Assembly: GCF_000026045.1 (NCBI RefSeq)
Contig: NC_007426.1
Coordinates: forward strand, 1,984,001-2,048,000
Reading direction: 5' to 3'
DNA: 64,000 bases
DNA from: Natronomonas pharaonis DSM 2160
Lineage (GTDB): Archaea > Halobacteriota > Halobacteria > Halobacteriales > Haloarculaceae
Shown here: positions 43,916 to 47,481 of the stretch, in pieces
Numbering within the stretch: the stretch's first letter is position 1
Layout: every line of letters starts with the position of its first letter
The notes under the pieces: generated by a model
Seen by the model: only the letters and a program-made list of their open reading frames with translations
The model's database searches: none
What the model was told of the DNA's origin: nothing
Position numbers and translations under genes: made by a program

Positions 43916-45871
43916 CTACTTGTTGTAGTCGTCGCCGTAGATATCCTGGACCTGCTCTTCGAACTGCTCCATGACGTTCCGCCGCTTGATTTTCATCGAC
44001 GGCGTCAGCAGGTCGTTGTCGGCCGTCCACTCGATGGGGACGAGCCGGAACTCTTTGATTTTCTCCGACTTCGAGAGCGTCTTGTTGACCTCTTCGACTT
44101 CCTCGTTGACGTACTCGCGGACGCGACTGTCTGCACAGATCGCCTCGGAGTCGTCGGGAAGGTCGATGCCCTCCTTGTCGGCCCACCGCTCGACGGCTTC
44201 GAGGTTCGGGACAAAGAGCGCGGCGATGAACTTCTGGTTGTCGCCGATGACCATCGCCTGGTCGATGCGCTCGGAGGTCGCAAACTCGTCTTCGATGGGC
44301 TGTGGGGCGATGTTTTTGCCCGTGTCGAGGACGATGAGCTGTTTCAGTCGGTCGTGGTAGATGAGGTAGTCATCGTCGGTCTGTTCGATGATGTCTCCGG
44401 TGCGGAACCAGCCGTCCTGAGTGAACGCTTCCTCGGTGGCCCCGGGTCGGTTCCAGTACCCCTCGGTGACGTTGGGACCTTTGACGTGGAGTTCGCCGAT
44501 GTCGCCGTCGGCGTTGGCCTTCTGGTCGTCGGAAACGACCGTCTCGTCGAGTCGAACCTCGACGTTGGAAAGCGGCGGGCCGAGCGTCCCGGAGCGGTAG
44601 TCTTCCGGCGGGTTCACAGAGACGACAGGCGAGGTTTCAGTCAGCCCATAGCCTTCGAGAATCGGAATGCCCATCCCGTCGAAGAGCTCGGCGAGCTGCT
44701 TGGAGAGGCTGCCGCCGCCGCTGACGAAGAACTCGATGTTGCCACCCATCTGCTCCCGTACCGACGAGTAGACGAGCTTGTCCATGAGCTTGTACTTGAG
44801 CTTCAGCCCAAGACCCGGGCTCTCGGTGTTTGCCCACTGGCGGGCGATGGGCACCGCGCGGTTGAACACGGCCTCGGGAGCCTCGTCGCGGAGGCTATCG
44901 TAGATGCGTTCGTAGACTCGCGGCACCGACGACGCGCCAGTCGGCTTGACAATCTGAATGTCGTCGGCGACCGTGTCGGTCGACTCGGCGTATGAGACAG
45001 TCGCGCCGGAGCCGAACATCAGGAAGTGGCCGGCGACGCGTTCGAAGACGTGGGCCAGCGGCAGGAACGAGAGGACGCGGTCGCGCTCATCGATTGCGGG
45101 CAGGTCCTCGTCTTTGTCTGGGCGGGGTGCAAAGCGCTTTCGGAGCCCGTTGACGTTCGACCGGAAGTTTCGGTGAGTGAGTTGGACGCCCTTCGGTTTG
45201 CCGGTCGTCCCCGAGGTGTAGATGAGCGAGGCCAGGTCGTCGAGGTCACGTTCGGCGAGCCGTGACTCGTAGGCGTCCTGGTCGAAGTGCTCGTCGCCGA
45301 GGTCGTGGACCTCGGCCAGCGAGAGGATGTCATCGCGGTCGTCGTGGCCGTCGAAGTCGTCGATAACGACGATAAACGAGAGGTCGAGTTCGTCTTCGAC
45401 CTCGAGTACCCGTTCGAGCAGTTCCCCGTTCTCGACGACGACGCCGTCGGCATTCGGGTCATCGAGAAGGTACTGGACCTGATTGGGCGACGACTCAGTG
45501 TAGACAGTCGTCACGACGCCACCGGCTGCAAGGATGGCGAAGTCTGACTGTGCCCACTCCATCCGGGTGTTGGCAAAGATGCCGACCCGTGTGTCGTTTT
45601 CGACGCCGAGTTCCCGAAAGCCGGCACTGAGGTTCCGGACGATTTCCTGCATCGTCTCGTATGTCAGTGATTCGAACTCGCCGGAGGGGGCCGCCGGGAG
45701 AACGTCCGGTGTCAGCGAGCGCTCGTAGACGCCCCCCTTGTACCACTGGGCATCTCGATCCGCGTGCCGCGAGGCGCTCTGCTCGAACAGCCTCGGAATC
45801 GTGTTCTCCCCAACCACCTCGTCCTCGAACTCCGCTTCGGCCTGTTTCCAGGCTGCCGTGCTGCTAGACAT
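43916..45871 (-). CDS. Long-chain acyl-CoA synthetase (AMP-forming, FadD15-like)
   Basis: A 651-residue AMP-binding ligase of the long-chain acyl-CoA synthetase group. P-loop [48 protein letters not shown] (A5), [14 protein letters not shown] (A7) and the C-terminal region around Lys in [14 protein letters not shown]. Distinct from the 549-residue synthetase at 33086; together they suggest broad fatty-acid activation. Preceded by a 220-bp A/T-rich gap. Confidence 0.9.
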
Positions 45872-46091: not shown

Positions 46092-46694
46092 GTGTTCCCA
46101 TCGATACCGTCGGTCGCTCCGGGGACCTGGCGATACGCTCGATTTCCACTGGTGGCAGCAGTCGTGTTCGCCGTTCTTTGGCCGCCGCTTGCGCTTGCGT
46201 GTCTCGCGGCCACCGTCGGCGTCTACTGGTTCCACCGCGACCCGGAGCGGTCACCACCGCCGACAGGCGTCGTTTCACCTGCCGACGGTCGCGTGTCCGT
46301 CGTCCGGACCGAGGGCCAACGGGTCCGGGTTGCGGTCTTCATGAACGTCACGGACGTGCATATCAACCGCGCGCCAGCCGCCGGCACCGTCACCTCAGTC
46401 GAGCATACGCCCGGCGGCCACCTGCCAGCGTTCAGCAAAAAATCCGACCGGAACGAGCGCGTGACAGTCGAGTTCGAGGAATACGAGCTCACGCTCATCG
46501 CCGGGACCGTCGCTCGACGGGTGTATCCCTACGTTGCGGCCGGTGACGAACTCGACCGCGGCGAACGCCTCGGTCACATCTCGTTTAGCTCTCGGGCCGA
46601 CGTGTTACTCCCACCTGAATACGACCGGAGCGACATTCGGGTCGAGGAAGGCCAGCACGTCCGGGCCGGCGAAACCGTCATTGCCGCTCGTTGA
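46092..46694 (+). CDS. asd: Phosphatidylserine/archaetidylserine decarboxylase (PSD family)
   Basis: A 200-residue proenzyme of the PSD family, short archaeal type, making phosphatidyl- or archaetidylethanolamine. Two N-terminal hydrophobic spans (about 19-45), FHRDPERSPPPTG, PADGRVSV (Asp65), FMNVTDVHINRAP (His90) and the C-terminal GHISFSSRADVLLPPEYD. The self-cleavage site that normally reads Gly-Ser (FGS, or LGST in bacteria) is FSS here: the Gly is Ser165-region residue 166, with Ser167 as the expected pyruvoyl precursor. The start is GTG 46092; activity is likely but not certain given that change. Confidence 0.88.
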   Translation: MFPSIPSVAPGTWRYARFPLVAAVVFAVLWPPLALACLAATVGVYWFHRDPERSPPPTGVVSPADGRVSVVRTEGQRVRVAVFMNVTDVHINRAPAAGTVTSVEHTPGGHLPAFSKKSDRNERVTVEFEEYELTLIAGTVARRVYPYVAAGDELDRGERLGHISFSSRADVLLPPEYDRSDIRVEEGQHVRAGETVIAAR

Positions 46695-46713: not shown

Positions 46714-46905
46714 TCACCGAGCGAGATACGTCACGTCGTGTTCGACCTCGTAGCCCTTCGGGACGCCGACTGCTTCGAGACACTCCTCACAGAGCGGCTT
46801 TTCCATGTCCTTGTTGTGCGTCCGTTCGAGCACCGAAACCTCCGAAAGCGGAAAGATTTCTTCACACCGGCTGCACTCGGTCTTGTCGCCGTCGATGATG
46901 TTCAT
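46714..46905 (-). CDS. 63-residue CxxC zinc-finger protein
   Basis: A small protein with two Cys pairs, CSRC (about 11-14) and CEEC (about 39-42), that should bind one zinc, in a charged background (NIIDGDKTE, SVLERTHNKDMEKP). Haloarchaea carry many such CPxCG-related small zinc-finger proteins, mostly of unknown function. The open frame runs to 47604 over other genes; ATG 46905 gives the self-contained small protein. Confidence 0.75.
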   Translation of the reverse strand: MNIIDGDKTECSRCEEIFPLSEVSVLERTHNKDMEKPLCEECLEAVGVPKGYEVEHDVTYLAR

Positions 46906-47043: not shown

Positions 47044-47481
47044 ATGACCAGCCGAAGCGACATCGCCCCGGAGACGCTGACAGTCTCGCTTGAATCCGAG
47101 GGCGTCGAAGTGGAGTACCTCGATGGCCGCTCGGTGTTCTATCATGGTGTCCCGGAAAAGAAAGCGGGAGCGGTTCACTGCCCGCCGGGCAAGGATGTCC
47201 ACGTGCTCGTGACGGCACCGGACGAAACGCAGGGTGTGATGGTGTACGTCAACGACCGCAACACGCACGACGACATCCTCGAATCGACTGGCGTCGGCCG
47301 CGTCATCATTGAGGGAGGCGAGACAGCGTCGCTGTTCCCTGGGGTTGCGGCCGAAAGCACCGGCTACCGGGTTGAGGTTAGCGCGGACTTCGATGTCGCC
47401 GACGGGCGCGTGTTCGTCTTTGCGGAAGACCAGATGGGCGAGTTCAGCTACGAACTCGTTCCGGAGTCGGAGGTGGCGTGA
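47044..47481 (+). CDS. Conserved haloarchaeal protein, DUF5796-like
   Basis: A 145-residue acidic protein. EVEYLDGRSVFYHGVPEKKAGAVHCPPGKDVHVLVT, ESTGVGRVIIEGGETASLFPGVAAES and FVFAEDQMGEFSYEL fit a haloarchaeal-only family (DUF5796) with predicted all-beta fold. Function unknown. Its stop overlaps the next gene by one base (TGATG), so the two are coupled. Confidence 0.78.
   Translation: MTSRSDIAPETLTVSLESEGVEVEYLDGRSVFYHGVPEKKAGAVHCPPGKDVHVLVTAPDETQGVMVYVNDRNTHDDILESTGVGRVIIEGGETASLFPGVAAESTGYRVEVSADFDVADGRVFVFAEDQMGEFSYELVPESEVA

What the first reader, a model, noticed from the sequence alone, without database searches (positions are those of the whole stretch)
46092..46694. PSD-family decarboxylase with altered self-cleavage motif
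These enzymes cut themselves between a Gly and a Ser to make pyruvoyl. Here the Gly is Ser (FSSR instead of FGSR). All other signature residues (PADG, VTDVHINR, LLPPEY) are intact. Cleavage might shift or slow.
Basis: partly seen in the sequence, partly recalled or inferred. Interest (0 to 1): 0.5.

Follow-up and report, generated by a model that had tools for sequence, protein, structure and literature searches.

The report
Lipid decarboxylase with Ser-Ser cut site
A haloarchaeal enzyme that must cut itself to become active has a serine where nearly all its relatives have a glycine beside the cut; the same swap has arisen several times among salt-loving archaea, so the enzyme is probably working, perhaps maturing slowly, and not broken.

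Summary
The gene at 46092-46694 (+) encodes PssD/Asd, the archaetidylserine decarboxylase of the archaeosortase lipid-anchoring pathway, the only PF02666 gene found in its genome. Residue 166, before the pyruvoyl-forming Ser167, is Ser (AGC), not Gly.

It is rare: of 391 class genomes, 338 have PssD and 12 of these carry FSSR. Two DNA patterns (which fit 188 of 197 genes in hand) found no other non-Gly residue. It is not unique: 14 species in six genera have it. Parsimony needs 5-6 changes, and an AU test rejects one clade of all FSSR rows; window + g6 alone is not rejected (p 0.092). The 18 other PssD genes found in the window's genus have Gly.

His90, Asp65 and Ser167 are kept in all 14, and dN/dS between the closest FSSR pairs is about 0.1, so sequencing error or a dead gene is unlikely. 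The E. coli PSD structural match pairs residue 165 with 252, hence S166 with Gly253. E. coli G253A matures slowly but does mature; Ser-Ser is the cut pair of a histidine decarboxylase.

Best reading: cleavage at S166|S167, possibly slower. A modest, testable variant. Maturation was not observed.

The parts
46092..46694 (+). pssD/asd: archaetidylserine decarboxylase proenzyme (PF02666; NCBIfam NF038088 anchor_synt_D)
   Evidence: NF038088 312 bits against cut-off 240; PF02666 E 8.9e-36; the only PF02666 match in the genome
46125..46232 (+). two N-terminal helices, residues 12-29 and 31-47 (membrane association inferred)
   Evidence: DSSP on the AlphaFold2 model, mean pLDDT 91.9
46284..46286 (+). 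Asp65 of PADG (counterpart of E. coli Asp90, by motif)
   Evidence: invariant in the 45-row alignment A1; 177 of 183 Gly rows; all 14 FSSR rows once L256 is read from its own ORF
46353..46361 (+). Asp88-Val89-His90 (counterparts of E. coli Asp142/His144, by motif)
   Evidence: His90 in 14 of 14 FSSR rows and 183 of 183 Gly rows; Asp88 only in 11 of 14 and 115 of 183
46509..46511 (+). Val140, Phe in most relatives; candidate permissive change for Ser166
   Evidence: Val in 13 of 14 FSSR rows and 15 of 183 Gly rows; cannot reach significance after correction for kinship
46587..46589 (+). Ser166 (AGC), residue before the scissile bond; Gly in nearly all relatives
46590..46592 (+). Ser167 (TCT), inferred nucleophile and pyruvoyl precursor
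   Evidence: Ser in 14 of 14 FSSR rows and 183 of 183 Gly rows
46092..46589 (+). predicted beta subunit, residues 1-166
   Evidence: inferred from the E. coli PSD cut and the structural register
46590..46691 (+). predicted alpha subunit, residues 167-200, pyruvoyl at its N terminus
   Evidence: inferred, as above

Best explanation
This is a working PssD (archaetidylserine decarboxylase). It is made as a proenzyme and cuts itself between Ser166 and Ser167. As in E. coli PSD, His90 helped by an Asp (Asp65 or Asp88) would activate the Ser167 hydroxyl. That hydroxyl attacks the carbonyl of residue 166, and the ester intermediate eliminates to leave a pyruvoyl on the alpha subunit. The Gly-to-Ser swap leaves the nucleophile and the cut position unchanged; it may slow or re-tune maturation a little. 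The swap was probably acquired separately in this lineage and has recurred several times in haloarchaea, always to Ser as far as seen. Shown here: family, rarity, recurrence, conserved catalytic residues, purifying selection in FSSR relatives, structural register. Inferred: that cleavage happens, its site and its rate.
For: Family. Recurrence and restriction to Ser. Fewest changes 6 (FastTree, 223 rows) and 5 (IQ-TREE, 102 rows); AU test rejects one clade of all 14 FSSR rows, p 1.67e-6. The window falls in a 9-row Natronomonas set with support 99/99. His90 and Ser167 in 14 of 14 FSSR rows; dN/dS 0.09-0.42 among seven g6 FSSR genes. E. coli PSD (7cnz_A, Z 11.5) aligned to model residues 12-165, last pair 165 with 252. 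E. coli G253A about 70% cleaved in the purified form (PMC7952604). Ser81-Ser82 is the autocleavage pair of Lactobacillus histidine decarboxylase (PMC8465708). ArtA and PssA are in the same genome.
Against: No processed FSSR protein was observed. Gly is the commonest residue in this place (PMC3689656), and E. coli G253A matures badly and G253P not at all. PssD is absent from 37 of 77 genomes of the family, so a slow decline is conceivable. The AU test for window + g6 as one clade gave p 0.092, so the independence of those two rests on branch support and on the codon type of Ser167. Asp88 is not Asp in 3 of 14 FSSR rows, though it varies among Gly rows too.
Confidence: 0.8

Rival explanations
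1. The Ser166 enzyme is a dead or dying decarboxylase: the proenzyme no longer cleaves and is kept for another role or is being lost.
For: E. coli G253P is not cleaved and G253A is strongly slowed. PssD is absent from 37 of 77 genomes of the family while ArtA and PssA mostly stay, so the step can be lost.
Against: Ser167, His90 and Asp65 intact in 14 of 14 FSSR rows. dN/dS about 0.1 between the closest g6 genes and 0.15 for the g13 pair. Shared by 7 of 8 species of g6. The window gene's end branch is 0.21, within the 0-0.25 of its Natronomonas neighbours, though above the tree's median of 0.15.
Confidence: 0.1
2. Cleavage is shifted by one residue to Phe165|Ser166, with Ser166 as the pyruvoyl precursor.
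For: Ser166 carries a hydroxyl that could in principle attack the carbonyl of residue 165.
Against: If so, Ser167 would be free to drift, yet it is Ser in 14 of 14 FSSR rows. The last aligned pair with E. coli PSD is 165 with 252, which puts Ser167 on the pyruvoyl position 254. Ser166 lies between the strands 159-164 and 167-172.
Confidence: 0.04
3. The AGC codon is a sequencing or assembly error.
For: No second record of the same species was compared here.
Against: Thirteen other species in five other genera have Ser at the same place, by TCC as well as AGC codons.
Confidence: 0.03
4. A milder form of the best reading: the enzyme works, and the swap is neutral and kinetically silent because the loop accepts Ser as well as Gly, mostly in a Val140 background.
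For: The swap recurs, and 13 of 14 FSSR rows have Val140 against 15 of 183 Gly rows.
Against: The g3 case has Phe140. The kinship-corrected comparison had at most two informative pairs. No Ala, Thr or Cys was found at this place by the patterns in 391 genomes, which hints at more than free drift.
Confidence: 0.4

Closest known systems
Haloferax volcanii PssD (HVO_0146, Asd)
   Same: H. volcanii is among the control genomes that match NF038088; its PssD is needed for ArtA-dependent processing (passages of PMC7157517)
   Different: H. volcanii's own sequence was not read here; the 11 named Haloferax records that were read all have FGSR. Self-cleavage was not discussed in the passages seen
E. coli phosphatidylserine decarboxylase (LGST)
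   Same: Structural alignment and cut position match; Asp-His-Ser processing residues recognisable by motif
   Different: LGST, not FSSR; longer N-terminal part; substrate phosphatidylserine; G253A slows maturation
Pyruvoyl-dependent histidine decarboxylase (Lactobacillus 30a)
   Same: Cuts between two serines, Ser81-Ser82 (passage of PMC8465708)
   Different: Other fold and substrate (recalled); an analogy of chemistry only
Pyruvoyl-dependent arginine decarboxylase (Methanocaldococcus, Chlamydia)
   Same: The Chlamydia pneumoniae enzyme self-cleaves at Ser53 (PMC2720952); a Ser52-Ser53 pair in the Methanocaldococcus enzyme is recalled, not from a call
   Different: Other fold; amino-acid decarboxylase (recalled)

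Membership tests
NF038088 anchor_synt_D / PssD | score over the curated cut-off | tested here: met
   312 bits against 240
PSD family PF02666 | domain score over gathering cut-off | tested here: met
   123.9 bits against 22
PSD family PF02666 | typical, but not part of the curated definition: Gly immediately before the nucleophilic Ser | tested here: not met
   Ser166, codon AGC. The family is defined by the whole-protein models above, and 14 full-length members share the swap, so membership stands while the textbook (L/F)GS motif does not
PSD family PF02666 | nucleophilic Ser, and the His and an Asp of the processing triad | tested here: met
   Ser167, His90 and Asp65 present and conserved; Asp88 present here but variable among relatives; roles transferred from E. 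coli by motif
PSD family PF02666 | PSD fold | tested here: met
   model pLDDT 91.9; E. coli PSD 7cnz_A Z 11.5, rmsd 3.0, 140 residues. IIA-Glc proteins score alike (Z up to 11.6), so the score alone is not specific; Foldseek had no match at E <= 0.001
PSD family PF02666 | self-cleavage into alpha/beta with a pyruvoyl group | not testable with these tools
   needs protein chemistry
Archaetidylserine decarboxylase of the ArtA pathway | ArtA and PssA in the same genome | tested here: met
   ArtA TIGR04125 E 1.4e-98 at G000:C1:908524; PssA NF038086 E 4.3e-93 at G000:C1:1560144
Archaetidylserine decarboxylase of the ArtA pathway | decarboxylates archaetidylserine | not testable with these tools
   no assay; in the passages seen it is a supported hypothesis for HvPssD, not a direct assay

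The most novel reading that the evidence does not exclude
Haloarchaea have repeatedly re-tuned the self-activation of PssD by swapping the scissile-bond Gly for Ser and for nothing else, mostly in proteins that had already exchanged Phe140 for Val. The added hydroxyl would make a slow 'Ser-Ser' activation timer that sets when archaetidylethanolamine becomes available for anchoring the surface layer, and the Val140 background would be a permissive epistatic step.
Probability: 0.15. Interest if true: 0.55.

Novelty: new variant of a known kind. Interest (0 to 1): 0.36.

Why it matters
Gly before the nucleophile belongs to the usual PSD motif, and its mutation harms the E. coli enzyme. A natural, repeated replacement, only by Ser as far as seen, gives a ready set of orthologues for measuring how the scissile residue controls pyruvoyl formation. 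The family models score the protein as an ordinary PssD, so annotation alone would not show it (inference). It also bears on the archaeosortase pathway, where PssD supplies the proposed lipid anchor and where this family of haloarchaea often lacks PssD.

Tried and rejected
Sequencing error was considered and set aside because 13 other species have Ser. Pseudogene status was considered and set aside on conserved residues and dN/dS.

A Ser166-Val140 association was tested by independent pairs. Of 4 pairs at most two were informative, and those went the same way, so it cannot reach significance; it is kept as a lead only. The distance between 140 and 166 was not measured because no model coordinates were laid in the Python box.

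A single origin of the window and g6 swaps was tested: p 0.092, not rejected. A single origin of all FSSR was rejected (p 1.67e-6). Whether Ser is derived or ancestral at the base of the haloarchaea is open: g80 (a long branch) and g76, both FSSR, branch deepest.

An apparent loss of Asp65 in one FSSR row (L256) was an alignment artefact of the query-anchored rows; the ORF reads AADG.

Sequence searches of the PDB gave nothing useful: phmmer no hit, the profile only weak hits up to E 1. Paper searches for a PSD VGSS mutant and for a Ser-Ser pyruvoyl site gave no paper. Of the listings only papers whose calls are named in this report were opened, plus PMC5413845 (Trypanosoma PSD, WGSS site; passages) and PMC8305020 (passages), which did not change the reading. 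The residue before the nucleophile was not surveyed in bacterial or eukaryotic PSDs.

Rows left out: L202 had no tblastn match to the window protein; rows with more than 90 of 200 positions empty and identical rows were dropped before the trees; the 102-row tree holds all FSSR rows, 4 of 26 outgroup rows and a sample of the Gly rows by genus. One search kept the best 80 of 152 relatives. The structure model used the window and 44 of those 80 loci.

Full report
WHAT IS THERE. The ORF at 46092-46694 (+) encodes a 200-residue protein. NCBIfam names it protein sorting system archaetidylserine decarboxylase (NF038088, 312 bits, cut-off 240), and Pfam gives PS_Dcarbxylase. It is the only PF02666 match in the genome of 2,749,696 bases. 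The records titled Natronomonas are at 67-73% identity. The total size matches Natronomonas pharaonis DSM 2160 as I recall it; no call names the organism. The residue before Ser167 is Ser166 (AGC, 46587-46589), where the family has Gly.

HOW RARE. In the 207 haloarchaeal loci (some genes more than once) the column was Gly in 195 and Ser in 12; by distinct gene sequence FGSR 174, YGSR 2, FSSR 8 of 184. In 223 distinct rows it was Gly 209, Ser 14. The 26 outgroup rows among them, best-scoring matches from genomes of other lineages of the phylum (30 loci read of 279 matching genomes; three of the 30 proved haloarchaeal and one gave no alignment), all have Gly. For a wider count I searched 391 genomes of the class with two patterns. 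One search (codon not starting with G) gave 18 matches in 17 genomes. Twelve lie in PssD and all encode Ser; the other six (in G215, G267, G065, G102, G034 and a second one in G058) show no PssD similarity. One search (codons for Ala, Val, Asp, Glu) gave 3 matches, none in PssD. The flanking pattern with any codon in the middle recognises 188 of the 197 distinct haloarchaeal genes in hand; the nine it misses all have Gly. So 12 of the 338 genomes with PssD have Ser there by this count and none another non-Gly residue, with perhaps 5% of genes unseen.

WHO HAS IT. Fourteen genomes, one per species: the window's (AGC); 7 of 8 species of genus g6 (six TCC, one AGC; the eighth is FGSR); G198 and G397 of g13 (AGC); G300 of g3 (TCC); G285 of g80 (AGC); G238 and G265 of g76 (AGC). 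In the window's genus 19 of 20 genomes have a match, and the 18 besides the window's are FGSR. Gly to Ser from GGC is one transition to AGC; the TCC forms need a further change of serine codon family.

ONE OR MANY ORIGINS. With the motif columns left out of the tree, the fewest changes are 6 (FastTree, 223 rows) or 5 (IQ-TREE, 102 rows). Forcing all 14 FSSR rows into one clade is rejected (p-AU 1.67e-6). Forcing only the window with g6 is not rejected at 0.05 (p 0.092). Against that union, the window falls in a 9-row Natronomonas set with support 99/99. Its Ser167 codon is TCN, as in the g1 and Natronomonas loci read (27 and 6), while the 18 g6 loci have AGY (loci, with repeats). G300 groups with g11 (100/100), whose rows are FGSR and share the following Phe169. 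The direction of change at the two deepest haloarchaeal branches, g80 and g76, is open.

IS IT ALIVE. In all 14 FSSR rows His90, Arg93, Ser167, Arg168 and Asp170 are kept. Asp65 is kept in all once one alignment artefact is corrected. Asp88 is Asp in only 11 of 14, but also in only 115 of 183 Gly rows. Among seven g6 FSSR genes dN/dS runs from 0.09 to 0.42, about 0.1 for the closest pairs; the g13 pair gives dN 0.062, dS 0.424 and the g76 pair 0.145 and 0.527. The larger ratios come with distant pairs, so they are rough. The window gene's end branch is 0.21, against a tree median of 0.15 and 0-0.25 for its Natronomonas neighbours: not clearly faster.

STRUCTURE. AlphaFold2 gives pLDDT 91.9, with strands 159-164 and 167-172 and residues 165-166 between them. 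Foldseek against the PDB had no match at E <= 0.001; the best was human chemotaxin 2 (2.3e-3), then the tryptophan decarboxylase PsiD (3.9e-3). VIA-align put E. coli PSD at Z 11.5 (7cnz_A, rmsd 3.0, 140 residues, model 12-165 to chain 23-252), tied with IIA-Glc proteins (Z up to 11.6), so the score alone is not specific. The useful point is the register. In all five E. coli PSD rows the last aligned pair is model residue 165 with chain residue 252. The E. coli beta chain holds Gly253 and the alpha chain begins with pyruvoyl 254, so Ser166 matches Gly253 and Ser167 the pyruvoyl.

WHAT IS KNOWN OF THE CHEMISTRY. From passages of Cho et al. 2021 (PMC7952604): E. coli PSD matures mainly through Asp90/Asp142-His144-Ser254. 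G253A showed no product after 4 h of induction but about 70% in the purified form; G253P stayed uncleaved. From passages of PMC3689656: Gly is the commonest residue before the nucleophile. From a passage of PMC8465708: Ser81-Ser82 is the autocleavage pair of Lactobacillus histidine decarboxylase. So Ser before the cut is chemically workable, but a small side chain there can slow a PSD.

A POSSIBLE PERMISSIVE STEP. Residue 140 is Val in 13 of 14 FSSR rows; in Gly rows it is Phe in 166, Val in 15 and Ile in 2 of 183. Most Natronomonas rows and the FGSR member of g6 also have Val, so Val140 may have come first. The g3 case has Phe. The kinship-corrected test had 4 independent pairs and at most two informative ones, all in the same direction, so this is only a lead.

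PATHWAY. In H. volcanii, PssA and PssD are needed for ArtA-dependent processing (passages of PMC7157517). ArtA and PssA are both in this genome. In 77 genomes of the family PssD is found in 40, ArtA in 74 and PssA in 76, of which 73 over the cut-off. Among 62 good genomes the counts are 32, 62 and 61. So 30 good genomes keep ArtA without PssD.

VERDICT. A real, rare, recurrent variant of a known enzyme. It most likely cuts at the usual place, perhaps slowly. No maturation was observed here, and the slow-timer idea is speculation.

Noticed in passing
family f1 genomes (G000 and 76 relatives): PssD (PF02666) is missing from 37 of 77 genomes (30 of 62 good ones) while ArtA is in 62 of 62 good ones and PssA in 61 of 62. 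Either the proposed archaetidylethanolamine anchor is not needed there or another enzyme replaces PssD. A passage of PMC7157517 says archaetidylethanolamine was reported absent from Haloarcula marismortui, and from Halobacterium salinarum too.
   Followed up: partly
L265 / L243 (G300, genus g3): G300 is the only g3 genome's table of matches; its FSSR PssD groups with genus g11: a survivor or a transferred gene.
   Followed up: partly
L214 (G724, genus g6): The only FGSR member of genus g6; its place relative to the FSSR members is unresolved in the tree.
   Followed up: no
window 43916-45868 (-): A divergently read AMP-binding acyl-CoA ligase (650 aa) lies beside pssD; a relative lies within the 4 kb flank in 5 of 80 named loci, three titled Natronomonas and two Halobacteriales MAGs.
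   Followed up: partly
window 46714-46905 (-) and 47044-47478 (+): A small four-cysteine protein (probably zinc-binding, inferred) and a DUF5796 protein lie downstream of pssD; at E <= 1e-10 they have relatives in 10 and 4 of 80 named loci.
   Followed up: no
L049, L053, L271 (genera g88, g9, g88): YGSR in place of FGSR, a second variation next to the cut site.
   Followed up: no
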